DNA of 24,032 nt from a virus (IMGVR_UViG_3300006919_000439:1-24032); one strand, 5' to 3'. Counted from the first letter of the stretch, positions 5,127 through 23,747 are shown. The notes: generated from the letters alone by a model not told the origin. Made by a program: numbers and translations.

Positions 5127-5918
5127 ATGTTTACTTCCGCACCGATGTTCACGAAGAAAGCTGCACTGTCCGCCATTCAAGGATCGATCCTGGCATATCG
5201 TGACGAAGAGACGATCAAAGAATGCTGTGAGCCTGCGGGCTGGAAGATTCATTTCATCGAGTCGAGCAAAGATGACGATTATGGCTGCGACGTGCAGCTT
5301 TTTGTCGCCGAGGGTCCGGACGAGTGTCATGTGTTCTTTCGCGGCACTGAGATGCCGGACATGTCGCAGCCTTTCTGGAATTTGAAAGCCATGGCTCTTG
5401 ACTGGTGGCAGAATTTCAAGATGTCTCGAACATCATGGTACGACGGTGAGGCACACAAAGGATTCGTCGAAGAGTACTATTCGATCCGAGATCAGTTGAC
5501 CGGTGTTCTCAAAGAGTCTGGAAAGCCGGTAACCATTGCCGGGCATTCCAAAGGTGGTGCGTTGACGACACTTTGTGCCATCGACTGTAAGTGGCTCAAC
5601 ATTGACATCTTTGGCATCTATACCTTCGGCTCGCCGAGAGTTCTCGACCATCCTTCGGCGAAGAAATACAAGGCCCACCTGGGCTCAAAGACGTACCGAC
5701 TGTTTCATAGCAACGACATTGTGCCCAGGACACCGTTGCCGTTTCGGTTCAAGCATGTCGGTGTGCCGATCTACGTCCGGCAAACGGCAGGCTACATCTA
5801 CAATGTGGGGAAGTGGGTCGCACTGGCTTTGCGAATCGTGAGTTACAAAACCGGCGACTTTGGGTCCGACCATTGTCGCGAGGCGTATCACAAATCAATT
5901 TTGAAGCATAAAGGTTGA
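5127..5918 (+). CDS. Class 3 lipase-like alpha/beta hydrolase
   Basis: This 263-residue protein starts at 5127, with GGAG at 5118-5121. The nucleophile elbow is GHSKGGAL, with Ser near residue 139; the fungal and plant class 3 lipase form is GHSLGGA. Before it comes the family's FRGTE oxyanion-side motif, and after it TFGSPRV, then HSNDIVPRTP, which supplies the catalytic Asp. A His near the C-terminus (SDHCREAYH) completes the triad. No signal peptide is seen, so it is either cytoplasmic and released at lysis, or acts on membranes from inside. A terminator lies just before it and a promoter starts at its stop codon. It therefore looks like a self-contained accessory gene, possibly for membrane disruption or host-lipid scavenging. 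Confidence 0.88.
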   Translation: MFTSAPMFTKKAALSAIQGSILAYRDEETIKECCEPAGWKIHFIESSKDDDYGCDVQLFVAEGPDECHVFFRGTEMPDMSQPFWNLKAMALDWWQNFKMSRTSWYDGEAHKGFVEEYYSIRDQLTGVLKESGKPVTIAGHSKGGALTTLCAIDCKWLNIDIFGIYTFGSPRVLDHPSAKKYKAHLGSKTYRLFHSNDIVPRTPLPFRFKHVGVPIYVRQTAGYIYNVGKWVALALRIVSYKTGDFGSDHCREAYHKSILKHKG

Positions 5919-5943
5919 CGCGAGATATAGGGCCGGATACTCT
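5915..5943 (+). promoter_or_regulatory. Promoter P1, motif in reverse orientation in the spacer
   Basis: TTGACG at 5915-5920 and TACTCT at 5938-5943 are separated by 17 bases. The spacer contains ATAGGGCCGG, the reverse complement of the CTGGYCCTAT motif found at the other promoters of this window. It overlaps the lipase stop codon and would drive the methyltransferase to polymerase operon. Confidence 0.6.
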
Positions 5944-5970
5944 CTCCTGATTCTAATCCCGCCAGGAGAG
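5942..5970 (+). promoter_or_regulatory. Hairpin that sequesters the ribosome binding site of the C5 methyltransferase
   Basis: CTCTCCTG at 5942-5949 is the exact reverse complement of CAGGAGAG at 5963-5970, with a 13-base loop. The right arm contains the AGGAG ribosome binding site for the ATG at 5975. Folding would block initiation, so translation may depend on an RNA-binding protein or on RNA chaperoning. Confidence 0.6.
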
Positions 5971-5974
5971 TTTG

Positions 5975-6730
5975 ATGCGTGTTGTTAGCCTGTTTGATTT
6001 CTCAACGTACGCTTTGAAGCCGTGGTTCGAAGCAGGTCACGAGACGATCGCGATCGATGAGCTGTACCAGACTGCAGCGTCGATACCTTTCAAGCCTGCT
6101 TCCAATTGGGCATTGGAAAGATACAACTGGAATTTGCTGCTGCCTGAGACTTTTCCTGAAGTCGCCAATCTCAAGCCTGACCTGATTCTGGCCTTTCCAC
6201 CCTGCACCGACCTCGCTGTGTCAGGTGCCAAGCACTTCGCAAAGAAATCTGCCGTTGACCCTGACTTCCAGAAGAAGGCAGTCGAGCTGTGCCGACTTGC
6301 TGAACGGCTCGGCAACTCGTGCGGCTGTCCCTGGATGGTTGAGAATCCGCTTGGCTGCCTGTCGACTCATTGGAGAAAGCCTGACTGGTTATTTCATCCA
6401 TGGGAATACGGCGGCATGCTGCAGGGTAAGGAATCCGTCCACCCTGACTGGCCAGAATTTATTGCCAAGCGAGACTGCTATCCGAAGCGTACCGGCATCT
6501 GGTGTGGCAACGGATTCCACATGCCGGACGTCGTACCTGCTCGTGTGATGCCTGACGGACAACGCATCTCATTTCCCAAGTGGCAGGCCCAGGACGAGTC
6601 GCGAAGATTCTCGACGCAGTTCCTGAAACTCGGCGGCAGCTCACTCAAGACAAAAATCATTCGGAGCCTGACACCGCGAGGGTTCGCGGCGGCTGTTCAT
6701 GCGGTAAACGATCCTGAGCATGGGAGTTGA
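5975..6730 (+). CDS. DNA cytosine-C5 methyltransferase-like protein
   Basis: This 251-residue protein begins VVSLFDFSTYALKPWFEAGHE, a diverged form of the SAM-binding motif I plus the motif II acidic residue region of cytosine-C5 methylases. LAFPPCTDLAVSGAKHF near residues 73-90 holds the PPC motif with the catalytic Cys. WMVENPLG near residue 120 corresponds to the ENV motif. The C-terminal TPRGFAAAVHAVN resembles the end of phage cytosine methylases. The length is short for a stand-alone C5 methylase, so the target recognition region is small. Likely role: methylation of phage DNA to evade restriction, or of nucleotides. The start is the ATG at 5975; a TTG directly before it is in frame but less well placed. 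First gene after promoter P1. Confidence 0.8.
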   Translation: MRVVSLFDFSTYALKPWFEAGHETIAIDELYQTAASIPFKPASNWALERYNWNLLLPETFPEVANLKPDLILAFPPCTDLAVSGAKHFAKKSAVDPDFQKKAVELCRLAERLGNSCGCPWMVENPLGCLSTHWRKPDWLFHPWEYGGMLQGKESVHPDWPEFIAKRDCYPKRTGIWCGNGFHMPDVVPARVMPDGQRISFPKWQAQDESRRFSTQFLKLGGSSLKTKIIRSLTPRGFAAAVHAVNDPEHGS

Positions 6731-6733
6731 AAA

Positions 6734-6943
6734 ATGATCGTGAAAATGGAAGTGACCGTCACAGTGACCCCGCCGAAAGGTCAGACGCTGAATACGCAGC
6801 AGGCGATCGAGTTGGCAATGTCAGCGGTGACGCAGAGACACGAAGTTGCTTGCGGCAGAGACATTGGAGAGAACTACGATCGAACAGCGTGGGCTGAAAT
6901 ATACGCCGAAGTGTCAGACAGTGACTGTGAGGTCATTGAATAG
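6734..6943 (+). CDS. Small hypothetical protein
   Basis: This 69-residue acidic protein has GGGAG just upstream of the ATG at 6734. The N-terminal half alternates hydrophobic residues (KMEVTVTVTP), suggesting a beta-strand. It is followed by a helix-like QQAIELAMSAVTQRHE. It contains two Cys and many Asp/Glu at the C-terminus. I do not recognise a family. It is in the same run as the methyltransferase and the next two genes. Confidence 0.6.
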   Translation: MIVKMEVTVTVTPPKGQTLNTQQAIELAMSAVTQRHEVACGRDIGENYDRTAWAEIYAEVSDSDCEVIE

Positions 6944-6957
6944 TAGGGGATGCGACT

Positions 6958-7143
6958 ATGGCGGAGCCAAAGTACTGTCAGAAATGCGAGAAGTATTTTG
7001 TCCAGAAGGGGTTTCGGCTTTGTTCCGTTTGCAAAGTTCAAACCGAAAAAGCAATGGAAGAGTCGAACTACTTGACGAAGACGATGTTCCCGAAGATACA
7101 TAGGTCCAGAAGTGCCCGAGAGGGTTCGGAAAGAGAAGAATGA
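6958..7143 (+). CDS. Small zinc-ribbon-like protein
   Basis: This 61-residue protein has two CxxC pairs, YCQKC near residue 7 and LCSVC near residue 22, spaced as in a small zinc ribbon. A basic and acidic tail follows. A purine-rich AGGGGATG lies upstream of the ATG at 6958. Its stop overlaps the next start (ATGA at 7140). Such proteins often bind nucleic acid or another protein; nothing more specific can be said. Confidence 0.6.
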   Translation: MAEPKYCQKCEKYFVQKGFRLCSVCKVQTEKAMEESNYLTKTMFPKIHRSRSAREGSEREE

Positions 7144-8093
7144 AGCACTACTCTGTAAAGTCCATCGAAGAAGCATGGAAGCATGCCTGTTACCATCACG
7201 TTGAGAACTGTCAGTTCGTCATGGACTCGGACATCAGCAAAGGTCCGGCGTGTTGTCTGAGCATCGCTCAGCCGTGGCGACGTGTGCCGAGCGTTGCAAC
7301 GAATCCGTTGATTCCGTTCTGGCTGTCCGTCCTGGCAATGACCGAGCAGGATCAAGACCCGGCTGTCATCCAGCAGTACGTTCCCGAGATCGCGGAATTC
7401 AGAGATCAGTCCAACTGCTTCTCCTTGGCGATGGGAGCACGGTTCCGAGAGTACGCAGGGTTCGATCAGTTCAACCTCGTACACGAGACTCTCCGCCTGG
7501 GCATGCAGGTCGTGCCGGTCGCCATCTTCGACGTGGAGAAAGACCATGCGTTGCAGCATCGTCCGTCAGCTCTCTCGGTGGTGTTCTCGATGTTCGGCGG
7601 AGACGTCAACGTCGTGGTGAACATAGATGCGATGCTCCTGCATGAGGTTCCGTTTCATTCTGAGCTGTCGGTGATCTCAGTCTGGCAGGAAATGCTCTGT
7701 GCCTACCTGGGCAAACGCATCGGCAGCATGGACGTCGTCTGTGGAGCGACTGCTGCCATGCAGTCTGACTCTCCGGCGTTTCGACAGATTGTGGATGGGG
7801 ACACGTCACCAGAACTTCAGAATCTGCCTGTCATGGGAAACGAGTCGGACCCAGAGATTCTGATGTCCGACTTCAGAACCTGGCCCATGGTGGGAGTGGC
7901 GGGCAAGGGATACAAGTCTGACTTCTTTCGACACACCGTGCTTCCCATGGCGATGGTGACGCAGGCACTGAAGAAAGAGAAAGTCGACCTGCACGATCGC
8001 AAACAACTCGCCTGTGAAGCTGCCCAGAGAATCAGTGACGTTGGGTGGCGAGGGCACGTCACCAACTGGGTCAACAATCATTTTGTGGAGTAG
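7140..8093 (+). CDS. Divergent thymidylate synthase (ThyA)-fold protein, probably lacking ThyA catalysis
   Basis: This 317-residue protein follows the ThyA-fold pattern. An N-terminal NPLIPFWLSVLAM helix corresponds to the family's P-x-x-x-A-x-x-E-x-x-W segment. LAMGARFREYAGFDQFNLVHETLR parallels the YG-x-RW...DQL region. VVVNIDAMLLHEVPFHSELSVISVWQEMLCAYLG parallels the RS-x-D-x-x-x-G...N-x-x-F segment. The catalytic PCH motif and the SRR phosphate-binding arginines are not visible at the expected positions, so it is unlikely to make dTMP in the standard way. The window also encodes ThyX. Possible roles are a modified-pyrimidine enzyme, a nucleotide-binding scaffold or a decayed ThyA (inference). 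It is translationally coupled to the zinc-ribbon gene and sits four bases before the polymerase. Confidence 0.55.
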   Translation: MKHYSVKSIEEAWKHACYHHVENCQFVMDSDISKGPACCLSIAQPWRRVPSVATNPLIPFWLSVLAMTEQDQDPAVIQQYVPEIAEFRDQSNCFSLAMGARFREYAGFDQFNLVHETLRLGMQVVPVAIFDVEKDHALQHRPSALSVVFSMFGGDVNVVVNIDAMLLHEVPFHSELSVISVWQEMLCAYLGKRIGSMDVVCGATAAMQSDSPAFRQIVDGDTSPELQNLPVMGNESDPEILMSDFRTWPMVGVAGKGYKSDFFRHTVLPMAMVTQALKKEKVDLHDRKQLACEAAQRISDVGWRGHVTNWVNNHFVE

Positions 8094-8096
8094 GGC

Positions 8097-10281: not shown

Positions 10282-10290
10282 CGATTAAGG

Positions 10291-10322
10291 TAACCGGGTA
10301 ACCGGGTAACCGGGTAACCGGG
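10291..10322 (+). repeat. Four perfect tandem copies of TAACCGGG
   Basis: The 8-bp unit TAACCGGG is repeated four times without mismatch just before the ribosome binding site of the methyltransferase. Each junction contains the palindrome GGTAACC. A further GGTAACCGG occurs at 11010-11018, on the other side of the methyltransferase gene. This could be a protein-binding array, slippage of a short tract, or a trace of the insertion of the AT-rich segment. Confidence 0.9.
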
Positions 10323-11099: not shown

Positions 11100-11128
11100 T
11101 TGACACACAACTCCCATGGCCCTATGCT
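11100..11128 (+). promoter_or_regulatory. Promoter P2, near-consensus
   Basis: TTGACA at 11100-11105 and TATGCT at 11123-11128 are separated by exactly 17 bases. The end of the spacer and start of the -10 form ATGGCCCTAT, a copy of the motif shared by the promoters of this window. It would drive the secreted peptide gene and the tRNA-like gene after it. Confidence 0.75.
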
Positions 11129-11914: not shown

Positions 11915-11935
11915 GGGTTTGGTCACCCATGGAAA

Positions 11936-11967
11936 GGGCCAGAGCAGCCATGCTCTGGCCCTTTTTT
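11936..11967 (+). terminator. Strong intrinsic terminator after csrA
   Basis: GGGCCAGAGCA at 11936-11946 pairs perfectly with TGCTCTGGCCC at 11951-11961, with a four-base loop and six T residues after it. This is the best terminator in the window. It also excludes the upstream in-frame ATG at 11929 for the Dam gene. Confidence 0.95.
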
Positions 11968-13506: not shown

Positions 13507-15886
13507 CTTTCTACAGAAATGGGAAGTGATAGGGCCATGGGTTCTCACGGCCATCAGCACAGACAAAAAATCAATTATTACAAAGGCGTTCAAAGAAGAT
13601 GATCTGGAGAAAATAGGACCATGGATTGAGCAGTACAACGGCAAGCGAAACATTTACTTCAACGTAAATCCGTCGCGAATTCTGATGGACAAGAAGTCCG
13701 AGCGAGCCAACGTGGAAGCGTTGGCCTGGCTGCACGTTGATATCGACCCAAGGGCGGGGGAGGACCATGGCAAAGAACGAGAGCGAGCCCTCGGACTGCT
13801 GCAGAACCCGCCTGCTGGAGTTCCCGAGCCTACGGTCATCATTGATTCGGGCGGAGGGTATCAAGGCTTCTGGGCACTCGAAGTGCCATTCGCAATTGCT
13901 GGACTTGCTGAAAATTACGAAGAGGCTGCCCGCTACAACAAGCAGCTCGAAATAGTTTTCCATGCAGACAATTGCCACAACGTTGATCGCATCATGCGAT
14001 TGCCAGGGACCGTTAATGTTCCCGACAAAAGGAAGGCAGCCAAAGGTCGAGTCCCTGCGTTAGCGAATCTGGTCTCGTTCGACGAAGAGAATGTTTACCC
14101 TTTAACGGCATTCAAGCAGTCGCCTCGAACATCTCAGATCGGTGGCGGGGGTTCGCTGCAATCAGCTCCTCGTAACAACGTCGTTCTGACAACTACGGTG
14201 CCACGGCTCGACACCGTAGACGATCTCGATGAGTGGAACGTACCGGATCGCATCAAGGTGATCGTGGTCAACGGCAGAGACCCAGACAATTTGAAGCTTA
14301 AGGATGACAGCAGGTCTGCCTGGCTGTTCGATTGTCTGTGTGGGCTGACAAGAGCTGGAGTGCCTGACGAAACGACCATGGCCATTCTGCTTGACCCGGA
14401 CTTCAAGATCAGTGAGTCCGTACTGGATAAGGGGGCCGAAGCCGAGAACTACGCGCTGCGGCAACTCAGTCGAGCCAAAGAGCATGTAGAAGAGCCGTTG
14501 CTGCAGGAACTGAATGACCGGCATGCCGTCGTCGAGAGTCTGGCAGGCAAGTGCGTCACGATCGAAGAAGTTCAGGAGCCTGTCGCTGAAGGTAAGTGGC
14601 GGTCACGACTGGTCGTGCAGTCGTTCGCGGACTTCAAGAATCGTTACATGAACCGGAGTGTTATCGTGGGTCAAAAGAAAGATGGCAGTGAGGTTACGGA
14701 GTCCGCAGGGGTATGGTGGCTGAAGTCGCCGCATCGCAGACAGTATCACGGTCTCACCTTCGCCCCTGGTCGCGACGTCGAGGGCTTTTACAATCTGTGG
14801 AGAGGATTTGCCGTCCAGGCAGTGCCAGGGGACTGCAGCATGTATCTGACGCACCTCAGGGACGTGATCTGCAAGGGCAACGAACAGCACTTCGAATATC
14901 TGATCGGCTGGATGGCGCGAGCCGTCCAATTCCCCGACTCCCCTGGGCAGGTCGCCGTTGTGCTGCGTGGAGCCCAGGGGACGGGGAAGTCGTTCTTCGC
15001 GAAGGTGTTTGGGCAGCTGTTTGGTCGACACTTCCTGCAGGTCTCTGACCCAAAGCATCTGGTAGGCTCATTCAATGCTCATCTGCGCGACTGTGTGATC
15101 CTGTTCGGCGACGAAGCATTCTTCGCCGGAGACAAGAGTCACGAGTCGGTACTGAAGACGTTGATCACTGAAGAGAACATGCAGATTGAACGCAAAGGAT
15201 TCGACGTCGAACAGTCGCCGAACTACACACACCTGATCATGGCATCGAACAGTCAATGGGTGGTGCCTGCGGGAGCGAACGAGCGACGGTTCTTTTGTCT
15301 GGATGTCGGCACACAGTTTCGTCAGAACTCAGAGCACTTTGCAGAGATCGCCAAGCAGATGGACAACGGTGGCAGAGAAGCTCTGCTGGACTACCTGCTC
15401 AACTACGACATCTCGAATTACGAGGTCCGCACGGTGCCAACGACCGAGGCTCTGCGAGACCAGAAGCACCTGACACGAGACCCTGTCGAGTCATGGTGGT
15501 TCGGCAAGCTGGTCGACGGTCATCAGATGGGCGACGAGCCGACGTGGCGTAAAGACATCGTCTGCGACGATCTGATGAAAGACTTTGTTCGATGGGCTCA
15601 GGAGTTCGGCATCAAGCATCGAGTGGTGCCCGCCCAGATCGGGCAATTCCTCAAACGCATGTGCCCTGGGCTGAGCCGCAGGCAGAAGTCCGTCGTGGTG
15701 ACTGGACTGAACATCTATCAGAAAGAAGTCGACCGGCACGTCAAGAAAGGTGTGTGGACATTCCCCAGTCTGGAGACATGTCGAAAGGCATGGGACTTGA
15801 ATATCGGTGACGAGGTCTGGCCGGAAGACTCGAAGCCAAAGACTGTTGCTGCGTATCCCGAAGACTCTATTGAGGATGTGATGTGA
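13478..15886 (+). CDS. Primase-helicase: archaeo-eukaryotic primase plus SF3-like helicase
   Basis: This 802-residue protein would prime DNA synthesis and open the origin or fork. The N-terminal primase-polymerase domain has LHVDIDPRAG near residue 86 (catalytic DxD), DSGGGYQGFWAL (the sGxGxh motif) and NVDRIMRLPGTVN (the hRLPGT-type motif). The middle is a linker of about 200 residues. The C-terminal helicase has Walker A GAQGTGKSFFAKVF near residue 498. It also has the B motif VILFGDEAFF and sensor region HLIMASNSQW with an arginine finger in NERRFF, as in D5/SF3-type phage helicases. A helical C-terminal domain follows. It starts within the nuclease gene with AAAGGA upstream. With PolA and the SSB-like protein it completes a replisome. 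Confidence 0.93.
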   Translation: MQGDTQAALDFLQKWEVIGPWVLTAISTDKKSIITKAFKEDDLEKIGPWIEQYNGKRNIYFNVNPSRILMDKKSERANVEALAWLHVDIDPRAGEDHGKERERALGLLQNPPAGVPEPTVIIDSGGGYQGFWALEVPFAIAGLAENYEEAARYNKQLEIVFHADNCHNVDRIMRLPGTVNVPDKRKAAKGRVPALANLVSFDEENVYPLTAFKQSPRTSQIGGGGSLQSAPRNNVVLTTTVPRLDTVDDLDEWNVPDRIKVIVVNGRDPDNLKLKDDSRSAWLFDCLCGLTRAGVPDETTMAILLDPDFKISESVLDKGAEAENYALRQLSRAKEHVEEPLLQELNDRHAVVESLAGKCVTIEEVQEPVAEGKWRSRLVVQSFADFKNRYMNRSVIVGQKKDGSEVTESAGVWWLKSPHRRQYHGLTFAPGRDVEGFYNLWRGFAVQAVPGDCSMYLTHLRDVICKGNEQHFEYLIGWMARAVQFPDSPGQVAVVLRGAQGTGKSFFAKVFGQLFGRHFLQVSDPKHLVGSFNAHLRDCVILFGDEAFFAGDKSHESVLKTLITEENMQIERKGFDVEQSPNYTHLIMASNSQWVVPAGANERRFFCLDVGTQFRQNSEHFAEIAKQMDNGGREALLDYLLNYDISNYEVRTVPTTEALRDQKHLTRDPVESWWFGKLVDGHQMGDEPTWRKDIVCDDLMKDFVRWAQEFGIKHRVVPAQIGQFLKRMCPGLSRRQKSVVVTGLNIYQKEVDRHVKKGVWTFPSLETCRKAWDLNIGDEVWPEDSKPKTVAAYPEDSIEDVM

Positions 15887-16365
15887 TGACTGACTTGTTT
15901 GAAAAAAGAGTCGCTCGAAGAATGATCAATGTGGATATCACTGCTGGTGATTTTGCAGCGATGGTCGGCGATACCCAGGATGCGGACCTGCATGCGGCGA
16001 TGCTGGTATCACTGATGCGTATCCTGCCGAGCTGGGAGTCGCTCGACATCGATTGGCCGAAGCACATCTGCCATGTGATTGCTCGCATGTCGAAGAAAGA
16101 CATCGAGTTGTTCAGGACGTTCCTAGTCAATGCGTACGAGGCGTTGCCGGACAAGGTCGATGAGACCATGTGGGAAGGCAAATACGGGTACGAGTTGAAT
16201 GAGGCAGGCACACTGCTGGCTCTGCAGGAACGCATCTTCAAATTGAAGATCGCCCTGGCAGACGCAGTGCGTCGACCGATGGGTGTGCATCCTGACTCCA
16301 TGCAGGGTCTGATAACCCAGGAAGAAGTAGATGCTGCTGAAGAGCGACGTCGAAAACATAGTTGA
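15886..16365 (+). CDS. Unknown alpha-helical protein after the primase-helicase
   Basis: This 159-residue protein starts at 15886, overlapping the primase stop (TGATG). It is predicted mainly helical from its sequence (ADLHAAMLVSLMRILPSW, HICHVIARMSKKDIELFRTF, LLALQERIFKLKIALADAV). It ends in a charged tail EEVDAAEERRRKHS. No motif is recognised. Its place suggests a replication accessory factor; this is only context. Its stop codon lies inside the -35 box of promoter P3. Confidence 0.65.
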   Translation: MTDLFEKRVARRMINVDITAGDFAAMVGDTQDADLHAAMLVSLMRILPSWESLDIDWPKHICHVIARMSKKDIELFRTFLVNAYEALPDKVDETMWEGKYGYELNEAGTLLALQERIFKLKIALADAVRRPMGVHPDSMQGLITQEEVDAAEERRRKHS

Positions 16366-16400
16366 CAGTCTCTGGTCCTACCTATAATCTCTGGCCCTTC
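16362..16400 (+). promoter_or_regulatory. Promoter P3, both boxes perfect consensus, two motif copies
   Basis: TTGACA at 16362-16367 and TATAAT at 16383-16388 are both perfect sigma-70 consensus, but the spacer is 15 bases, short of the optimum. CTGGTCCTAC lies in the spacer at 16372-16381 and CTGGCCCTTC downstream of the -10 at 16391-16400, two copies of the shared motif. It would drive 16411 onward. Confidence 0.75.
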
Positions 16401-16911: not shown

Positions 16912-16986
16912 GACTCCGTAGCTTAATTGGCAGAGCGGCGGGAACATTAATCCGTGTCAGTGCAGGTTCGACACCTGCCGGAGTCA
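16912..16986 (+). tRNA. tRNA gene, anticodon arm unusual
   Basis: The acceptor GACTCCG/CGGAGTC is seven perfect pairs, the D-arm is GCTT, loop AATTGGCA, GAGC, and the T-arm is GCAGG, loop TTCGACA, CCTGC. The anticodon stem is best drawn as GCGGG (16938-16942) with TCCGT (16951-16955), two of them wobble pairs, leaving an eight-base loop AACATTAA. The anticodon is therefore unclear (CAT, ATT or a shifted reading), and the base before it is not T. No CCA is encoded. It lies between hairpin copies 1 and 2. Confidence 0.75.
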
Positions 16987-16994
16987 ATCGCGTA

Positions 16995-17021
16995 GACACC
17001 CGGACTGAGAGTCCGGGTGTC
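16995..17021 (+). repeat. Hairpin repeat copy 2, perfect
   Basis: GACACCCGGACT and AGTCCGGGTGTC are twelve perfect pairs around a GAG triloop. There is no T-run after it, so it is not a standard terminator. It lies nine bases after the tRNA 3' end. Confidence 0.9.
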
Positions 17022-17038
17022 ATAGAAAGGATCACAGG

Positions 17039-17200
17039 ATGGAAGTTGAAGCGGCGGAAGCAATCGGCAGCGGTATAGCGTGGGCTGGCTTCTGGATTGG
17101 TGTTGGAATCTCGTTTCGGTATCTCCTGCTGTTCGCTGGTGCCAATCCGAATTACTTTCAACTCGAAGTGGAACACAAAGAGAAGAGACCCCAGGACTGA
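17039..17200 (+). CDS. Small membrane protein between two hairpin repeats
   Basis: This 53-residue protein has AAAGGA and AGG upstream of the ATG at 17039. It has a short acidic N-terminus (MEVEAAEA), one hydrophobic segment (IGSGIAWAGFWIGVGISF, then YLLLFAGA) and a charged C-terminal tail EVEHKEKRPQD. It is a single-pass or hairpin membrane peptide of unknown role. Its TGA stop lies at the loop of hairpin copy 3. Small membrane peptides like this in phages include holin-associated and inhibitor peptides; no choice can be made here. Confidence 0.65.
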   Translation: MEVEAAEAIGSGIAWAGFWIGVGISFRYLLLFAGANPNYFQLEVEHKEKRPQD

Positions 17201-17213
17201 GAGTCCTGGTGTC
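17187..17213 (+). repeat. Hairpin repeat copy 3
   Basis: GACCCCAGGACT and AGTCCTGGTGTC pair at eleven of twelve positions around the same GAG loop. It overlaps the stop of the small membrane gene. No T-run follows. Confidence 0.85.
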
Positions 17214-17217
17214 TGGT

Positions 17218-17261
17218 GAAAAATTCCCCCGCCGCAAACTAATAAACAAATGAATAGGTAA
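17218..17261 (+). repeat. Repeat element, copy A of a 44-bp pair
   Basis: This stretch resembles 20817-20860 at roughly three quarters of positions, sharing CCCCGCCGCAA and CAAATGAA plus AGGTAA. Read in one frame it ends EKFPRRKLINK-stop, close to the KKFPRRNYTDK-stop end of the 20718 gene. It may be a gene-end fragment duplicated into the leader of the MazG-like gene, whose start has AGG from this repeat as ribosome binding site. Confidence 0.6.
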
Positions 17262-17798: not shown

Positions 17799-18002
17799 AT
17801 GAAACGCATGGAAGAGCTCGAACGAGCCATGCTTCATCAGAAGCATGAAGTACCGCTGAGCAAAAAGCAGGAACGCCTGCTGGACATCGCGAAGCAACGA
17901 TCAAAGAAAGGCGGCTGCGTGGAGCGTCGTCACCCTGCTGTGTTCGACGCTCTCGTTGAACGGGGCTTACTCACTGAAGATGGGAAGTACATCGAGCAAT
18001 GA
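17799..18002 (+). CDS. Small basic hypothetical protein
   Basis: This 67-residue protein probably starts at the ATG at 17799, ten bases after GGAG. An ATG at 17790 is in frame but only a base away from that site. It is a charged helix (MEELERAMLHQKHEVPLSKKQERLLDIAKQRSKK) followed by HPAVFDALVERGLLTEDGKYIEQ. The last segment reads like a winged-helix turn. No family is recognised. The stop overlaps the thyX start (ATGA), so it is coupled to it. Confidence 0.6.
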   Translation: MKRMEELERAMLHQKHEVPLSKKQERLLDIAKQRSKKGGCVERRHPAVFDALVERGLLTEDGKYIEQ

Positions 18003-19066
18003 ACAGCAACAGCCAACAAGTGGAAGACCTGCGGTGGAAAAAGTTCCCTGTGGGGTCCGATGGATTCGTCTGCCTGGTCGACTGCATGGGCGACGACGCT
18101 TCGGTGACGCAAGCAGCGAGAGTGAGTTACGGGAACGATGCTCGTGAAGAGGGGTCCGATGGAGCTGGGGATCGCAACCTGATCCGCTACCTCATGCGAA
18201 TGGCGCATTCCACGCCGTTCGAGATGGCTGAAGTCAAGCTGCTCGTTCGTGTGCCGATGGATGCGTGGCGGCAGTGGATCAGACATCGCACGGCGAACGT
18301 CAATGAGTACTCGACACGGTATCAACCTGCGATCGACTCGATGGCGGTGACTGCCCCTGACGAGTGGCGGCTGCAGGCGTCGAACAACAAGCAGGGGTCC
18401 GATGGTATTCTGCGGGAGTGGCCGGAAGGGTGGTCGTCGGAGGAAAGCACCGACGAAGAGGGAGATGAGTACTGGAGAATCACCGCAGCCAACGGTCGTT
18501 CGTGGGAGTTCGGCAAGTCGTCTTACAACTTCACAAAGCCCATGACCCCTGGGCAATTCCTGTCGCTCTGGGAGAAGAAGAATCAGAAAGCAATGCAGTA
18601 CGACTACAACGTCCGCCTCGAACTCGGAGTCGCTCGCGAAGTCGCCCGAAAAGACCTGCCGCTCTCGACGTACACCGAGGCGTACTGGAAGTGTGACCTC
18701 AAAAACGTCCTACACTTCCTGGGCTTGAGGATGGACTCGCATGCCCAGAAAGAGATTCGTGACTACGCCACGATTATCGGTGAGCAGATCATCGCACCGC
18801 TGTTTCCTCAGGTGTGGGATGCGTTCTCGGACTACCGGTTGCACGGGATGTTTTTGACGGGCATAGATCGCAAAATGCTGAAAGAAATTATTCCCTACAC
18901 CGATCCCAACGGAGAACATCGAAGCTGTTCCCGAGAAGAATCTTTGATGCTTATGAGGAACGGCTCCTTTTCTCCTGACATGCCCAAAGACTGGGGCAAC
19001 GAGAAGAACCGTGAGCGTGACGAGTTCATTGGAAAGATGCAGGCTCTCGGGCTGATCTCCGATTAA
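17999..19066 (+). CDS. thyX: FAD-dependent thymidylate synthase ThyX
   Basis: ThyX makes dTMP from dUMP with FAD and methylenetetrahydrofolate. The diagnostic RHR-x7-S motif is present as RHRTANVNEYSTRY near residue 98. QAARVSYG lies near residue 39, and the RYLMRMAHSTPFE helix precedes it. ELGVAREVARKDLPLSTYTE and LKNVLHFLGLRMDSHAQKEIRDYA match the C-terminal active site region. At 355 residues it is much longer than typical ThyX (about 220-250), with an insertion of about 70 residues after the motif (SEESTDEEGDEY) and a C-terminal extension (DPNGEHRSCSREES). It overlaps the preceding stop and follows the MazG-like gene. It is fully intact, unlike the ThyA-fold protein at 7140. Confidence 0.95.
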   Translation: MNSNSQQVEDLRWKKFPVGSDGFVCLVDCMGDDASVTQAARVSYGNDAREEGSDGAGDRNLIRYLMRMAHSTPFEMAEVKLLVRVPMDAWRQWIRHRTANVNEYSTRYQPAIDSMAVTAPDEWRLQASNNKQGSDGILREWPEGWSSEESTDEEGDEYWRITAANGRSWEFGKSSYNFTKPMTPGQFLSLWEKKNQKAMQYDYNVRLELGVAREVARKDLPLSTYTEAYWKCDLKNVLHFLGLRMDSHAQKEIRDYATIIGEQIIAPLFPQVWDAFSDYRLHGMFLTGIDRKMLKEIIPYTDPNGEHRSCSREESLMLMRNGSFSPDMPKDWGNEKNRERDEFIGKMQALGLISD

Positions 19067-19069
19067 CCG

Positions 19070-19104
19070 TTGCCTTCTGGCCCTTAACAATGCTATGGTC
19101 CTAT
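19070..19104 (+). promoter_or_regulatory. Promoter P4 candidate, two direct motif copies
   Basis: TTGCCT at 19070-19075 and TATGGT at 19094-19099 are 18 bases apart, a weak pair. CTGGCCCTTA at 19077-19086 and ATGGTCCTAT at 19095-19104 are two copies of the shared motif. Downstream, CTATGGT (19093-19099) and ACCATAG (19116-19122) can pair, and the right side runs into the AGGAG of the next gene. Confidence 0.5.
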
Positions 19105-19131
19105 CGTTAGTTTTAACCATAGGAGCCAGCC

Positions 19132-19458
19132 ATGGCTAAGAAGAAAGCAGCGGCACCAAAGCCACGAACGACATCGACGAAGAAACGACAGCCGTTGAAG
19201 AAAAAGGCGGCTGCCAAGAAGGAAGACAAGCGACTGAGTCGACGCAAGAGGTCCGACCTCAAACGCTACGACCAGACGCTGTCTTCAATGCTGTACGCTG
19301 AGCTATCCATCATGGCGAAGCAGGCAGAGATGGACCTTCGCACATTCATCGAGCACTGCCTGCGAACCTGTCCTGCGGTGAAACGTCACCTCAAGGACAA
19401 CGACATTGAACTGCCGGAGCGACCGGTGCGAGGGAACCCGGCATCACAGAAAAAGTAA
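19132..19458 (+). CDS. Lys-rich, probably DNA-binding small protein
   Basis: This 108-residue protein starts with AGGAG six bases upstream. The first 45 residues are extremely basic with K/A/T repeats (KKKAAAPKPRTTSTKKRQPL), like a histone H1 tail. Residues 47-85 (YDQTLSSMLYAELSIMAKQAEMDLRTFIEHCLRT) resemble a compact helix-turn-helix or ribbon-helix-helix dimer region. It probably binds nucleic acid, perhaps as a nucleoid-like or transcription factor. No family assignment is safe. It is the first gene after promoter P4. Confidence 0.7.
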   Translation: MAKKKAAAPKPRTTSTKKRQPLKKKAAAKKEDKRLSRRKRSDLKRYDQTLSSMLYAELSIMAKQAEMDLRTFIEHCLRTCPAVKRHLKDNDIELPERPVRGNPASQKK

Positions 19459-19459
19459 C

Positions 19460-19936: not shown

Positions 19937-20453
19937 ATTTCTCGTCAAGCTTGGCATGAGGCGAACCATCAAGCAGCCAGTCAGCTCAGGTCTCTGTCTG
20001 GCAGCCTGCGCCGCTACGTTGCTCGGCGAGAACAAGTCTGCCTTCAATGCCTGGTCGTTGTCCGGCTACATCCGAAAGATGCCTGCAGGACTCTGTCCGT
20101 ATCTCACCGATCGCCGGTACATGGAGATGTCTGACCTGACCATCGTCCTGGCACTACGCAACTTCCGCCTGGGCAGTTGGTGGAACAGTGGCGATGAGAT
20201 GGACATCAGGTTCAATGAGTTGCTCTCGTACGACGTCACTCATAAGTTGGATGAAGCACCTGCCCTGGTGATTGTTCGAAGTGAGGGAGCCGAAGGGGAC
20301 GGTGTGACGCATGCTGTGGTGTATGACAATGAAGCCCAGGGGGTTCGTGATCCGAGTAATGCGGTGAAGGACGAGTTGTGTGACCTGGCAGGTTATCGGA
20401 TCGCTGAGTGGTTTCCGATCGACACGTTCCCGAAAGATGAGCTGGTACAATGA
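19926..20453 (+). CDS. Putative papain/C39-like cysteine peptidase-fold protein, GTG start
   Basis: This 175-residue protein starts at GTG 19926 with GGAG nine bases upstream, overlapping the previous stop. KQPVSSGLCLAACAATLLGE provides a Gln, then a Cys at a helix start, as in papain and C39 bacteriocin peptidases. THAVVYDNEAQGVRDPSN provides the His and the Asp of a triad (H-x-V-V...DP). This order Q, C, H, D/N matches the C39-like fold. The middle segment has no recognisable features. It could cleave a host or phage protein or be inactive. Function is inferred only from these positions. The stop overlaps the next start (ATGA). Confidence 0.45.
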   Translation: MSDEFLVKLGMRRTIKQPVSSGLCLAACAATLLGENKSAFNAWSLSGYIRKMPAGLCPYLTDRRYMEMSDLTIVLALRNFRLGSWWNSGDEMDIRFNELLSYDVTHKLDEAPALVIVRSEGAEGDGVTHAVVYDNEAQGVRDPSNAVKDELCDLAGYRIAEWFPIDTFPKDELVQ

Positions 20454-20716
20454 ATGACTCCGCAGTGGCTTCAAGAGTCCGAGAGGTCAGTGGCCTCATC
20501 CTGCTGATCTGCTTCTGGGGATGGGTGTGTCGAGCCTACGGCTACATGCCGATCCCTCTGTGGCTGATCCTGACTCCCGTCACACTGGTCGTCCTGTTCT
20601 GGGGAGCTGCATTCACCCTGGCGTTCATTGCCTGGGTGATCTGCATAGCAAGAAAAGTTGACCGGGAAATTGAAGAAGAGAAACGGAAATCTGGAACCGA
20701 CGAGCAGTGGTGGTGA
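20450..20716 (+). CDS. Small two-helix membrane protein
   Basis: This 88-residue protein overlaps the preceding stop. Two hydrophobic segments are clear: VSGLILLICFWGWVCRAYGY and LWLILTPVTLVVLFWGAAF, continuing into TLAFIAWVICIA. A charged tail RKVDREIEEEKRKSGTDEQWW follows. Two or three membrane spans with a charged C-terminus fit holins and related small phage membrane proteins, but no lysin is next to it. It is followed closely by another membrane peptide gene. Confidence 0.7.
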   Translation: MNDSAVASRVREVSGLILLICFWGWVCRAYGYMPIPLWLILTPVTLVVLFWGAAFTLAFIAWVICIARKVDREIEEEKRKSGTDEQWW

Positions 20717-20717
20717 C

Positions 20718-20852
20718 ATGGACATGCCTATTTTGCTGTGGCACCTGATACTTTTCATGGTGCTGCGTGATACGATCAAGCTGCTGTTCTTTCTCGCAGA
20801 CAGAAGAGCACTTCAGAAAAAATTTCCCCGCCGCAACTATACTGACAAATGA
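20718..20852 (+). CDS. Small membrane peptide with basic tail
   Basis: This 44-residue peptide starts at 20718, one base after the previous stop. One hydrophobic helix (PILLWHLILFMVL) is followed by LLFFLADRRA and a basic end KKFPRRNYTDK. Its last codons lie in repeat copy B and match a tail encoded near 17218. Together with the 20450 gene it forms a membrane pair of unknown role. Confidence 0.6.
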   Translation: MDMPILLWHLILFMVLRDTIKLLFFLADRRALQKKFPRRNYTDK

Positions 20853-20860
20853 ACAGGTAA
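20817..20860 (+). repeat. Repeat element, copy B of a 44-bp pair
   Basis: This copy covers the end of the 20718 gene and its stop. It shares CCCCGCCGCAA and CAAATGAA plus AGGTAA with 17218-17261. No gene starts immediately after this copy, unlike copy A. Confidence 0.6.
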
Positions 20861-20888
20861 AATAAATCTTTTGAAAATCTTTTCCGAT

Positions 20889-20930
20889 TAGGGCCAGATG
20901 GGTTGCATCTGGCCCTATGCTTTGTACGAT
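20889..20930 (+). promoter_or_regulatory. Promoter P5 inside a 12-bp perfect hairpin
   Basis: TTGCAT at 20903-20908 and TACGAT at 20925-20930 are 16 bases apart, with CTGGCCCTAT at 20909-20918 in the spacer. TAGGGCCAGATG at 20889-20900 is the perfect complement of CATCTGGCCCTA at 20906-20917, so the motif is doubled in opposite orientation. The bases after it (AACATCATA, then GACGCAACAA) recur after promoter P6. Confidence 0.6.
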
Positions 20931-21138
20931 AACATCATACAAGACGCAACAATGACTGACTCGGAGCGGTGACAAACACAACCCACTTGCTTCGTGGCGA
21001 TGACTGAAACTTCCTTTGAGATGAAAGCGGTGACCATCATGATTGGCTGAAGGGGGCAGGCGAAAAGCCAGCAAGGATTCCTAAGACCCCCAGGATGTGA
21101 CTTTTCTTTTTCGCGGCAACTAACCCAGGAGAGATGTG
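20931..21138 (+). promoter_or_regulatory. Long leader of the 21139 gene
   Basis: No gene is seen in this 208-base stretch. A hairpin of GGGGG (21052-21056) with CCCCC (21087-21091) contains GGC-GAAAA-GCC. It is followed by CAGGATGTG at 21091-21099, a second AGGATGT like the one at csrA. AAGGATT near 21073 is also exposed. CAACTAACCCAGGAG at 21117-21131 carries the ribosome binding site and recurs at 21519-21533. Confidence 0.45.
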
Positions 21139-21327
21139 ATGAAGAACGCGACCTGCCCTGACTGCGGAAAGCATCATCAGATCGATCAGAAGACTTTCGA
21201 TCAGTTTGGTGTGGACTGCTTCTGCATGCGATGTGTCGACTGGGCACATGTCAAATTCATGAAGAACAACAAAGCAGGAATCAAGACCTGCGTTAAGGGT
21301 TGCCGATGCGGTTTCGGCGACAAGTAG
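21139..21327 (+). CDS. Small Cys-rich zinc-binding protein
   Basis: This 62-residue protein starts at 21139 with AGGAGA upstream; a GTG three bases earlier is in frame. CPDCGKHH and CFCMRC give two CxxC pairs for one zinc ribbon, and a further C...CRC cluster lies near the C-terminus (TCVKGCRCG). Lys and His are abundant. It probably binds nucleic acid or a host protein. Its closeness to a tRNA-like RNA just downstream may be meaningful, but no link is shown. Confidence 0.65.
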   Translation: MKNATCPDCGKHHQIDQKTFDQFGVDCFCMRCVDWAHVKFMKNNKAGIKTCVKGCRCGFGDK

Positions 21328-21333
21328 AGGAAA

Positions 21334-21510
21334 GGGCGAGCAGGGAACTGGACGGTTTGGCATCGTGCATCCCCCCTGACTGTCGAAGGCTATACCGAGT
21401 CGTACGCAAGGTGGCTTTCTACTTTGAGTGATATCCTCAAAGTAAACGGGCAGCTAAGAGTTTGAGGAAACCGGGTTCGAAACCCGGAGTTCCCTGCTCG
21501 CTCTTTTCTT
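21334..21510 (+). ncRNA. Long tRNA-like structured RNA with alternative pairing and T-run end
   Basis: The outer arms GCGAGCAGGGAACT (21336-21349) and AGTTCCCTGCTCGC (21488-21501) form fourteen perfect pairs. Inside the right end is a perfect T-arm, CCGGG, TTCGAAA, CCCGG (21471-21487), directly joined to an acceptor AGTTCCC that pairs with GGGAACT at 21343. ACG...CGT with GG in the loop follows the left acceptor like a D-arm. About 105 bases replace the anticodon arm, including the nine-pair hairpin TACTTTGAG/CTCAAAGTA (21420-21444). CCTCAAA there can also pair with TTTGAGG at 21461-21467. TTTTCTTT follows the outer stem. It is too long for a tRNA and too short for known tmRNA. Confidence 0.55.
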
Positions 21511-21540
21511 TCTGAAACAACTAACCCAGGAGTCACTGCG

Positions 21541-21993
21541 ATGCCACGAGTCAACTACGTCCAAAAAGCCCGTAAAGATAATCCTGCCGTCAAAAAAGGC
21601 GAGCCTTACTATTGGTGGCAATTTGCCTACAGCTCGAAGAGCTACAGCAGAACTCGACCACGAGCCTCACAGTTGACTCGTTCTGAGTTTCTTTCAGAGA
21701 TGTATTCGATCATTGAAGAAGTCGAAGACATGTCCCAGGAGGACTTGGGAGGTGAGGGTGCCGACGACCTTATCAACGATCTTGTGAGTCGCGTTGAAGC
21801 GTTGCGAGATGCTGCCGACGAATCCTTCAATAACATGCCAGAAGGTCTTCAGATGGGTCCAACAGGTGAGCTGTTGGAAGCCCGTGTTGCGGCTTGCGAA
21901 CAGATGGGGGACGACCTCGAAGCTGCCAAAGACGGAAATGACGGCGAAGAAAAACTGACTTTACTGCAAGGCGTATCTTACGACGGAGAATGA
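21541..21993 (+). CDS. Conserved phage hypothetical protein
   Basis: This 150-residue protein starts with AGGAG ten bases upstream. The N-terminus (VQKARKDNPAVKKGEPYYWWQFAYSSKSYSRTRPRASQLTRSEF) matches a phage protein type I remember as common and uncharacterised. In some relatives Cys pairs flank this region, suggesting a lost or absent zinc site here. Residues 50-150 form an acidic coiled-coil-like helix (SIIEEVEDMSQEDL, LVSRVEALRDAADESF, LLEARVAACEQMGDDLEAA). The function is unknown. It probably folds as a helical bundle with a nucleic-acid-like basic head. Confidence 0.65.
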   Translation: MPRVNYVQKARKDNPAVKKGEPYYWWQFAYSSKSYSRTRPRASQLTRSEFLSEMYSIIEEVEDMSQEDLGGEGADDLINDLVSRVEALRDAADESFNNMPEGLQMGPTGELLEARVAACEQMGDDLEAAKDGNDGEEKLTLLQGVSYDGE

Positions 21994-22002
21994 GGATTTA
22001 AG

Positions 22003-22278
22003 ATGGGACGTCCAAGAACATCAGCCTCTGAAATCGCCGACAACTTCGTGCTCTGGAAAGAGACGGGGCCATCGAAAGGCATGGCTCTGCACAAAGGTAA
22101 GCAGATTTATCGCTCGGTGCAGAGCTGGCAGGCGGAGCGTGTCGTCCTGATGACTGACGAGATCGAGTGGCGACTGTTCTGGCGAGGAATCAATGTTGTA
22201 CAGCGGCTCGGCGACATGCAGCCTGCAGAGATGCGCGAGTGGCTGATTACTGAAATCGATGAGCTGTTTGATAATTGA
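22003..22278 (+). CDS. Small hypothetical protein
   Basis: This 91-residue protein has AGGA before the ATG at 22003. It starts MGRPRTSASEIADNFVLWKE, and ends EMREWLITEIDELFDN. The GRPR start resembles an AT-hook-like minor-groove contact, though one copy is weak evidence. The rest is Trp-rich (SVQSWQAE, IEWRLFWRG). No family is recognised. Confidence 0.6.
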   Translation: MGRPRTSASEIADNFVLWKETGPSKGMALHKGKQIYRSVQSWQAERVVLMTDEIEWRLFWRGINVVQRLGDMQPAEMREWLITEIDELFDN

Positions 22279-22288
22279 AAGAAGTCCA

Positions 22289-22468
22289 ATGACCGATAAA
22301 GACATTCAGATCACTGCCCTGAAGCAGTTGGTGCTCGACCTGACGGACGGCGACTTCCTGCATCCGCAGGACATTCAGCGGCAGACAGGCTTCAGCCTGA
22401 CGAAGTGTGCCGACATGTTGAAGCAGATTGATGACATTCGAATCCAGGCAAGCCGGGGGAAACTGTGA
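22289..22468 (+). CDS. Small possible helix-turn-helix protein
   Basis: This 59-residue protein starts at 22289 after a purine-rich GAAAGAAG. QDIQRQTGFSLTKCADMLKQIDD looks like a helix-turn-helix with the second helix recognition-like, and the N-terminal ALKQLVLDLTDGDFLHP is a preceding helix. The end overlaps the next gene start (TGATG). It may be a small DNA-binding regulator; the evidence is the pattern only. Confidence 0.5.
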   Translation: MTDKDIQITALKQLVLDLTDGDFLHPQDIQRQTGFSLTKCADMLKQIDDIRIQASRGKL

Positions 22469-22728
22469 TGGACGACGACAAGATCACCTCGCTGAAACGC
22501 GAGATCAACAACTTTATCCACGAGCATGGTCCTGATGCCATGACACTGAAGCAGGCGGAGCGTGCCGCATGCATTCTGCTCGAAGCGTTTCTTGAGGCCC
22601 AGGGTCCGCCTGCGGACACCTATGTCAACAGACCTTGCCCAACCTGCAGCGAAGTCGGGTCCGAAGTCGCTGCTGACAACAGTGACTTCGCAAACTGCAT
22701 GGCATGTGGAGAAAGGTGGCTGCTGTGA
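22468..22728 (+). CDS. Small protein with C-terminal zinc ribbon
   Basis: This 86-residue protein overlaps the previous stop and has GGGGGAA upstream. Helical residues 1-45 (ITSLKREINNFIHEHG, LKQAERAACILLEAFLEA) are followed by a ribbon CPTCSEVGSE...CMACGERW with two CxxC pairs about 20 residues apart. Such small phage proteins are common and of unknown role. Confidence 0.6.
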   Translation: MDDDKITSLKREINNFIHEHGPDAMTLKQAERAACILLEAFLEAQGPPADTYVNRPCPTCSEVGSEVAADNSDFANCMACGERWLL

Positions 22729-22730
22729 GA

Positions 22731-22976
22731 ATGTCCCACGAAGGGCCAATGCTTAAAAAAGTTCGTCTCTGGAACCAGTCGACAACGATCGACAATCAGG
22801 GCAACGAGTGGTGGATTTTTTCCTGGGACGGAAAACCGATTGAAACGTGGCGAGACGAAAAAGCTGCCAGATTTTACATGCAGGAATTTTACAAGTGGAA
22901 TGACAGATACGGTGTGCCGCGAGTGATGCTGTATCGGTGCATTCCTGGGATCGGATTTGTGAGACAGGAGTCTTGA
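22731..22976 (+). CDS. Small hypothetical protein, start uncertain
   Basis: The frame gives 81 residues from the ATG at 22731, or fewer from an ATG at 22749 with AAGGG before it, or two more from a GTG at 22725 that overlaps the previous stop. It contains WNQSTTIDNQGNEWWIFSWDGKPIETWRDEKAARFYMQEFYKW, a beta-hairpin then helix with many aromatic residues. No family is recognised. It is the last gene before a gene-free structured stretch. Confidence 0.55.
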   Translation: MSHEGPMLKKVRLWNQSTTIDNQGNEWWIFSWDGKPIETWRDEKAARFYMQEFYKWNDRYGVPRVMLYRCIPGIGFVRQES

Positions 22977-23202
22977 GAGTGCCGTAGTTCTAACCCAGGG
23001 TGTGACCTGGGCTCGCAGTGGGATCAGCAGGCAGGTTGCAAACTGTTTGCTGGGTGCCGGTCTCGACGGAGAGCGGAGCTACAAGGCGAGATAAAACATC
23101 CGGGGAAAACCCGGAAGATTCCCTGCGACGTCCGGCAGCTAAAGTGGCTGTTGGTCACCAGGGGCGGTTCTCTCAGGACTCCTGACTTAGAAAGGCAGGG
23201 TG
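22977..23202 (+). ncRNA. Gene-free stretch with several hairpins, possible structured RNA
   Basis: No gene is seen. Hairpins include CCCAGG/CCTGGG (22994-23011), GCAAAC/GTTTGC (inverted, one base between), CCGGG, GAAAA, CCCGG (23100-23114), and CAGC...GCTG near 23136-23150. GGCAGCTAA near 23134 also occurs inside the 21334-21510 RNA, near 21450. CTAACCCAGG near 22990 echoes the leader repeat CAACTAACCCAGGAG. The stretch contains no T-arm, so it is not a tRNA. Confidence 0.35.
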
Positions 23203-23334
23203 ATGAAATATCTCAGTTGGATCATGGTCGCTGTCTCACTGACAGGGCTGACCTTCCTGGGCCTGGTGGCTTTGGCTGCCATTGGAAACATCCTCATCGA
23301 CTGGACTGTCGAATTATTGAAAGCAACACGATGA
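23203..23334 (+). CDS. Small single-pass membrane peptide
   Basis: This 43-residue peptide has AAAGGCAGGG before the ATG at 23203. It is almost entirely one membrane helix (SWIMVAVSLTGLTFLGLVAL, then AAIGNILI), ending DWTVELLKATR. Its stop overlaps the next start (ATGA), so the two are coupled. Role unknown. Confidence 0.65.
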   Translation: MKYLSWIMVAVSLTGLTFLGLVALAAIGNILIDWTVELLKATR

Positions 23335-23690
23335 AAAAATTAACACTTAAAGGCCAACGATTCGGAAGCTTGACAGTAATCGGCGAAGCGACTCCGAAAG
23401 ACGGATCGCCATTTACACATTGGAAGTGCAGGTGTGATTGCGGGAAAGCTGTCACGGTGCGTGGAGTGTGTCTGAAACACGGAAATACCAAAAGCTGCGG
23501 ATGCTCTCGTCAAGTGGAAGGTTTCAACGCTCGGACGCTGCTCACATATGACGGTCGGACGCAGTCCTTGAGTGCCTGGGCTCGCGAGATGGGAATGAGT
23601 CGGTCGGTGTTGAGCGTGCGACTGCATCGTGGTTGGGAACTGGAAAAAGCTCTGACGACGCCTGTCAGAAAAAGAGCAGTCAATTCCTGA
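23331..23690 (+). CDS. Phage zinc-ribbon plus NUMOD/IENR-like DNA-binding protein
   Basis: This 119-residue protein starts at the ATG at 23331, coupled to the preceding peptide. Residues 6-55 (GQRFGSLTVIGEATPKDGSP, then WKCRCDCGKAVTVRGVCLKHGNTKSCGC) are the RFG-L-TV...CDCG...SGNTKSCGC module. That module is found at the start of phage HNH and AP2-domain homing-type proteins, with four Cys for zinc. The C-terminal 40 residues (TQSLSAWAREMGMSRSVLSV, then RLHRGWELEKAL) match the repeat motif seen at the ends of homing endonucleases (WA-x-x-x-G-x-S...R-x-x-x-GW-x-x-x-x-AL), a helix-turn-helix-like DNA contact. No nuclease core lies between, so it may be a remnant or a free-standing DNA-binding protein. 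Confidence 0.75.
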   Translation: MKKLTLKGQRFGSLTVIGEATPKDGSPFTHWKCRCDCGKAVTVRGVCLKHGNTKSCGCSRQVEGFNARTLLTYDGRTQSLSAWAREMGMSRSVLSVRLHRGWELEKALTTPVRKRAVNS

Positions 23691-23701
23691 AACTTTCTGA
23701 A

Positions 23702-23747
23702 ATAGGACCAGATAGTGGATTGACGCTGGCCCTATGGACGATACACT
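23702..23747 (+). promoter_or_regulatory. Promoter P6 with inverted motif pair
   Basis: TTGACG at 23720-23725 and TACACT at 23742-23747 are 16 bases apart. CTGGCCCTAT starts the spacer at 23726-23735, and ATAGGACCAG at 23702-23711 is its reverse complement with one mismatch. Spacer and downstream bases resemble P5 (CTGGCCCTATG, AACATCATA, GACGCAACAA). Confidence 0.7.

What the first reader, a model, noticed from the sequence alone, without database searches (positions are those of the whole stretch)
5915..23747. Six promoters share a CTGGYCCTAT motif in or beside the -35/-10 spacer
P1 (5915), P2 (11100), P3 (16362), P4 (19070), P5 (20903) and P6 (23720) all place a copy of CTGGYCCTAT, or its reverse complement, between or directly beside the promoter boxes. 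P3-P6 carry two copies, inverted in P5 and P6 and direct in P3 and P4. P5 and P6 also share spacer and downstream sequence. A spacer-bound operator for a phage repressor or activator, or a phage-specific promoter class, would explain this. The motif also occurs before the HNH gene (2484-2493).
Basis: partly seen in the sequence, partly recalled or inferred. Interest (0 to 1): 0.78.

Follow-up and report, generated by a model that had tools for sequence, protein, structure and literature searches.

The report
Phage promoters sharing one embedded operator
In a group of uncultured bacterial viruses, every standard-looking intergenic promoter that could be found carries the same ten-letter DNA word between or across its two recognition boxes, most likely a docking site that lets one viral protein control much of the virus's early gene programme at once.

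Summary
TCTGGYCCTA(T) occurs at all six promoters named, and near-matches are far above chance (14 against 1.2 expected). I found three related IMG/VR contigs, including a 52 kb relative (G002). In G002 TGGCCCTA is the commonest intergenic 8-mer, and 27 of 32 TGGYCCTA copies touch the ~15% of positions that are intergenic (p about 3e-18). All 14 canonical intergenic promoters (TTGAC-N15..18-TANNNT) in the four contigs carry the motif in the spacer or across the -10; the two such strings inside genes do not. Position in the spacer varies, both orientations occur, and several promoters have a second copy. That fits an autonomous operator better than a fixed promoter element. Best reading: operators of one trans-acting, phage-encoded regulator, probably a repressor. 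My leading candidate is the basic protein at 19132-19458. It resembles ribbon-helix-helix repressors in weak fold matches only, and two conserved motif copies lie before its own gene. The link between protein and motif is inferred. In kind this resembles SP-beta SPBRE/MrpR and mycobacteriophage stoperators, but motif, placement and candidate differ. Neither the motif nor the candidate was found beyond these four contigs in the collections searched.

The parts
5915..5943 (+). P1: TTGACG-17-TACTCT with reverse-oriented motif (5927-5936) in the spacer
   Evidence: orthologous promoter in G002 at 14934 keeps the motif 8/8 and the boxes
11100..11128 (+). P2: TTGACA-17-TATGCT; motif 11116-11125 runs into the -10
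   Evidence: promoters at the corresponding place in G001 (6038) and G002 (19243) have the motif in the same register
16362..16400 (+). P3: TTGACA-15-TATAAT; direct motif copies 16372-16381 and 16391-16400
   Evidence: double-site layout also in G002 24893 and G001 ~11485
19070..19104 (+). P4: weak promoter (TTGCCT-18-TATGGT) with two direct motif copies 19077-19086 and 19095-19104, upstream of the candidate regulator gene
   Evidence: both cores 16/16 conserved in G002 27749/27767 at the same 18-bp spacing
20888..20930 (+). P5: inverted motif copies (20888-20897 minus, 20909-20918 plus), TTGCAT-16-TACGAT; the two copies can also form a hairpin
   Evidence: cores 16/16 conserved in G002 29551/29574, where TTGCAT-16-TACGAT is the best promoter
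23702..23747 (+). P6: inverted motif copies (23702-23711 minus, 23726-23735 plus), TTGACG-16-TACACT
   Evidence: the upstream copy is kept in G002 32256, the downstream copy is not
2484..2493 (-). Motif copy without recognisable promoter boxes, at the end of the helicase gene just before the HNH gene
   Evidence: conserved in G002 11161 apart from the R/Y position
19132..19458 (+). Candidate regulator: 108-aa basic protein, ribbon-helix-helix-like core about residues 45-80, lysine-rich N-terminus
   Evidence: AlphaFold models plus Foldseek/VIA-align hits mostly RHH proteins; highest net charge among the top-pI predicted proteins under 260 aa in the window and G002; no family or sequence hit
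23331..23690 (+). Second candidate DNA-binding protein: matches HNH-endonuclease families of phages, conserved in G002, directly upstream of P6
   Evidence: PHROG hits; weak HTH hits in Pfam

Best explanation
TCTGGYCCTA(T) is the operator of one trans-acting, phage-encoded transcription regulator that acts on most or all host-type (sigma-70-like) promoters in the early and replication part of the genome. Bound inside the -35/-10 spacer or across the -10, the protein would block RNA polymerase, switching early promoters off later in infection or keeping the genome quiet in a carrier state. Second copies 16-28 bp away would give cooperative or tighter control. Shown here: the motif, its intergenic bias, its place in every canonical intergenic promoter found, and its conservation. 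Inferred: that it binds protein, that the effect is repression, and that the protein is the ribbon-helix-helix-like product of 19132-19458, whose own promoter region carries two copies (possible autoregulation).
For: 14 of 14 canonical intergenic promoters in four contigs carry the motif in the spacer or -10, while only 2-8% of equally sized intergenic windows do. TGGCCCTA is the commonest intergenic 8-mer of G002, 24 of 28 copies intergenic; binomial p 2.6e-18 for TGGYCCTA in G002 and 8.6e-6 in the window. The motif starts 1-2, 5 or 11 bases after the -35 box, or at 7 in reverse orientation; a variable register suits a blocking protein better than a fixed promoter element or an activator with set geometry. 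Cores are kept while flanks diverge in P4 (16/16 against 45/64) and P5 (16/16 against 88/124). The candidate's weak fold matches are mostly ribbon-helix-helix proteins, CopG first for one model, with MazE, TacA, Arc and SvtR also listed, and its gene follows P4.
Against: No transcription or binding data exist. The fold evidence is weak: Z at most 4.3, no significant Foldseek E-value, and neither AlphaFold model shows the N-terminal strand that defines the fold. No sequence profile supports it. P6's downstream copy is not kept in the aligned G002 region. Some copies lie outside recognisable promoters. The contigs are fragments and most structural genes were not seen, so the regulator could be encoded elsewhere. 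The promoter test rests on a strict consensus and on my own gene calls.
Confidence: 0.6

Rival explanations
1. The motif is a promoter element: a phage-modified or phage-directed host RNA polymerase reads it (as T4 MotA/AsiA read the MotA box), so it marks a phase-specific promoter class and activates rather than represses.
For: It is found in every canonical promoter. Eight of the 14 canonical promoters use one register, with TGGYCC directly abutting the TA of the -10.
Against: Other registers and the reverse orientation are also used and conserved (P1 and its orthologue). -35 and -10 boxes remain near consensus, so no substitute element seems needed. Extra copies lie upstream and downstream.
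Confidence: 0.2
2. The sites are bound by a host transcription factor that the phage has recruited.
For: No bound phage protein is demonstrated; the host is unknown.
Against: Use at nearly every early promoter would be unusual for a host factor (own judgement). A distant relative has another word: Ab18 has no TGGYCCTA in 50 kb but its own CTTGCCTT at six intergenic promoter-like sites, though its host differs too.
Confidence: 0.1
3. The true regulator is another phage protein, such as the HNH-family protein at 23331-23690 or one encoded in the unsequenced part; otherwise the mechanism is as in the best explanation (this rival overlaps it and the two confidences are not exclusive).
For: 23331-23690 is basic, has weak HTH hits, is conserved in G002 and sits just before P6. 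Much of the genome is not in these contigs.
Against: The protein belongs with HNH-endonuclease families, which have another known role. The 19132-19458 gene has the conserved double site.
Confidence: 0.35
4. Chance, or a by-product of hairpin terminators and codon preferences.
For: A terminator-like hairpin at 11933-11964 uses TGGCCCTTT, P5 is a hairpin, and two window copies encode IGPW in the primase.
Against: Enrichment over shuffles, over permuted patterns and in intergenic DNA; 14 of 14 promoters.
Confidence: 0.02

Closest known systems
SP-beta repeated element (SPBRE) and its repressor MrpR, Bacillus prophage SP-beta (PMC10516654)
   Same: One word repeated in intergenic promoter regions of one phage; proposed from sequence alone as repressor sites and later shown to be so.
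   Different: SPBRE is 15 bp and its repressor is a derelict tyrosine recombinase; here the word is about 10 bp, sits inside the spacer or -10, and no such protein was identified.
Operators/stoperators of cluster A mycobacteriophages (L5, TipsytheTRex; PMC9283540, PMC6550527)
   Same: Short, asymmetric, phage-specific sites scattered over the genome, more than twenty copies.
   Different: Stoperators mostly lie outside promoters and in one orientation, bound by a monomeric two-domain repressor; here all canonical promoters carry the word and both orientations occur.
Ribbon-helix-helix repressors (Arc of P22, CopG, plasmid omega, SIRV1 SvtR)
   Same: Small proteins acting on short boxes at promoters (own knowledge); Arc, CopG and SvtR appear among the weak fold matches of the candidate.
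   Different: Known phage examples control one or a few promoters (own knowledge); membership of the candidate is not established.
T4 MotA boxes in middle promoters (own knowledge; review PMC2988021 found but not read)
   Same: A phage-wide word tied to sigma-70-type promoters.
   Different: The MotA box replaces the -35 at a fixed place (own knowledge); here near-consensus -35 boxes remain and the position varies.
YuA-like phages such as Pseudomonas phage Ab18 (Mesyanzhinovviridae)
   Same: Homologous helicases, DNA polymerase and primase; Ab18 has its own repeated word, CTTGCCTT, at six intergenic promoter-like sites.
   Different: Different word; Ab18's HTH 'putative repressor' ORF21 has no relative in these contigs.

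Membership tests
Phage-wide repressor-operator regulon (kind of SPBRE/MrpR) | Repeated word concentrated in intergenic promoter regions of one phage | tested here: met
Phage-wide repressor-operator regulon (kind of SPBRE/MrpR) | A phage protein binds the word and represses those promoters | not testable with these tools
   needs binding and reporter experiments
Cluster A stoperators | Most sites lie outside promoters | tested here: inconclusive
   all canonical promoters carry the word, but a number of G002 sites have no clear promoter boxes and may be outside promoters
Cluster A stoperators | Predominantly one orientation relative to transcription | tested here: not met
   by count, 19 plus and 8 minus among intergenic TGGYCCTA in G002, with all called genes on plus; a plus bias, but conserved promoter sites are reversed
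Ribbon-helix-helix (MetJ/Arc/CopG) superfamily, for 19132-19458 | Sequence match to an RHH family profile | tested here: inconclusive
   no Pfam RHH match to either orthologue, RHH_1 searched directly without match; short divergent domains are easily missed
Ribbon-helix-helix (MetJ/Arc/CopG) superfamily, for 19132-19458 | Strand-helix-helix fold, dimeric | tested here: inconclusive
   the two helices are predicted and most listed fold matches are RHH proteins (Z up to 4.3), but the strand is not predicted and a dimer could not be modelled
Sigma-54 promoters | GG-N10-GC (-24/-12) | tested here: not met
   read off P3, P5 and P6: GG-N10 is followed by AA, TG and GA; boxes are TTGAC/TANNNT-like

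The most novel reading that the evidence does not exclude
A family of phages places essentially all its host-type promoters under one ribbon-helix-helix regulator through an operator embedded in the spacer, a single-switch design for early transcription that related phages (Ab18) rebuild with a different word and presumably a different protein.
Probability: 0.25. Interest if true: 0.6.

Novelty: new member of a known kind. Interest (0 to 1): 0.45.

Why it matters
If right, a single protein-DNA contact governs a large block of early transcription in an uncultured phage lineage, and both partners are named closely enough to test with one purified protein and one short duplex. It also gives a way to map promoters in these phages from sequence alone, and suggests that promoter-embedded words differ between lineages of YuA-related phages, perhaps as immunity-type specificities do.

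Tried and rejected
Inverted-pair pattern scan of IMG/VR: besides G002 and G004 the hits are compact inverted repeats in unrelated contigs, many terminator-like, and one coding repeat, with little wider motif use. Promoter pattern scan: no unrelated contig of comparable length stands out like these. Search for relatives of the candidate regulator: none in phage records, none in IMG/VR beyond G002 and G004, none in the genome collection. RNA element: no Rfam match at the promoters, and the spacer copies lie upstream of the expected starts. Sigma-54 promoter: spacing does not fit. The HTH protein of G002 16934-17239 was set aside because the window has no gene at that place (8093/8097 abut). Motif copies inside the primase gene were set aside as coding: they encode IGPW, and G001 has no matching copy in its primase start. 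The literature search turned up no description of a promoter motif in YuA-like phages among the listed hits. One literature query returned nothing.

Full report
What was checked. The window is a 24,032-base IMG/VR virus record. CTGGYCCTAT with up to one mismatch occurs 14 times against 1.22 expected in dinucleotide shuffles, and GGYCCTAT 9 times against 0.33. All six promoter sites and the HNH-proximal site exist at the stated places, with the caveat that only three window copies are exact.

Relatives. A DNA polymerase query found G001 (L004, 11.7 kb) and G002 (52 kb) at 84% protein identity, plus a distant contig L006 at 32%. The primase query found G004 (17 kb), whose primase is identical to the window's and which overlaps the window's right end and extends it by about 4.5 kb. 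G002 was read in three overlapping pieces. Genes were called with a codon-usage script and lie on the plus strand throughout; I corrected a few calls by hand.

Intergenic bias. TGGYCCTA occurs 32 times in G002, 27 touching intergenic positions, and 9 times in the window, 7 touching them; intergenic positions are 14.6% and 11.7%, giving binomial p of 2.6e-18 and 8.6e-6. TGGCCCTA is the commonest intergenic 8-mer of G002 (24 of 28 copies). Patterns made by shuffling the motif's columns average 0.2 intergenic hits in G002 against 21 for the real one; the highest shuffled value, 20, is presumably a shuffle that nearly recreates the motif.

Promoters. Every intergenic TTGAC-N15..18-TANNNT in the four contigs (4 in the window, 8 in G002, 1 in G001, 1 in the new part of G004) carries the motif in the spacer or across the -10; two such strings inside G002 genes do not. 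The product of background frequencies is about 3e-17. That figure treats promoters as independent, and some are orthologues (P1 and G002 14934, for example), so it overstates the case; the 14 of 14 is the firm part. Eight of the 14 have TGGYCC abutting the TA of the -10; others start 1-2 or 5 bases after the -35, or lie reversed at 7. Aligned on the core, 51 sites give TCTGGYCCTA with little outside it.

Conservation. In P4 and P5 the cores are fully kept (16/16 each) while flanks are 45/64 and 88/124. P3 keeps its double layout in G002 and G001. P1 keeps its reversed site. P6 keeps only the upstream copy in the aligned G002 region. The HNH-proximal site is kept in G002 although the downstream gene differs.

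Candidate regulator. 19132-19458 encodes a 108-aa protein with the highest net charge among the most basic predicted proteins under 260 aa in both phages. Its residues 45-80 read like a ribbon-helix-helix core (my reading). AlphaFold models from a two-row alignment are of low to moderate confidence (pLDDT 64 and 75) and show the two helices but a helix where the strand should be. Foldseek gives no significant hit, but the weak hits are mostly RHH proteins. VIA-align places CopG first at Z 4.3 for one model, and MazE, TacA, CdbA, Arc and SvtR at Z 2.5-2.8 for the other, where histone chains also appear. No family or sequence search supports it. I therefore call it RHH-like and the assignment inferred. 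The HNH-family protein at 23331-23690 is a second candidate.

Context. The nearest isolated phages by the polymerase are YuA-like; Ab18 shares helicases, polymerase and primase. Ab18 has no TGGYCCTA in its first 50 kb but has CTTGCCTT at six intergenic promoter-like sites. Its HTH 'putative repressor' ORF21 has no relative here. Stable Ab18 lysogens were not obtained in PAO1, and a pseudolysogenic state was suggested in another strain (PMC4482731), so a carrier-state role is possible but unproven here. In 20 G002 proteins scanned with Pfam no integrase appeared; not all G002 proteins were scanned.

Comparison. The best analogue in kind is SPBRE/MrpR of SP-beta (PMC10516654). Cluster A stoperators (PMC9283540; PMC6550527) share dispersion and asymmetry but differ in placement and orientation.

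Verdict. The motif is real and promoter-bound, most likely an operator. Repression and the identity of the protein are inferences. The design is known in kind; the member is new.

Noticed in passing
L008 16956-17675 (G002 35956-36675): Protein matching Tad4, a type I Thoeris inhibitor (PF25186, E 7e-26).
   Followed up: no
L008 18743-19288 (G002) and L013 15220-15747 (G004): 2'-5' RNA ligase / LigT-like phosphoesterase; could be RNA repair or a counter-defence enzyme.
   Followed up: no
window 7140-8093 and 17999-19066: Two thymidylate-synthase-related genes: a weak homologue of Ab18 ORF14 (24% identity) and ThyX. YuA-like phages are reported to resist many restriction enzymes (PMC4482731), so modified thymine is possible.
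   Followed up: no
window 16912-16986: tRNA-like gene read by ARAGORN with a four-base anticodon (TAAT), Rfam tRNA 44 bits; also in G004.
   Followed up: no
window 10289-10322: Perfect tandem repeat of GGTAACCG, 4.2 copies, just before a gene.
   Followed up: no
window 20931-21138, 21328-21540, 22977-23202: Long stretches without called genes downstream of P5 and before P6, with no Rfam match.
   Followed up: partly
L009 11748-12948 (G002 49748-50948): 1.2 kb without called genes holding five motif-like copies, two of them in a repeated 35-bp unit.
   Followed up: partly
L100 8161, 8272, 20974, 23888, 25937, 37496: Phage Ab18 has its own repeated word CTTGCCTT at six intergenic promoter-like sites, all plus strand.
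   Followed up: partly
L006: The distant relative shows several TTGAC-N16/17-TATTAT boxes followed by TTAAAACA, a different shared promoter sequence.
   Followed up: no
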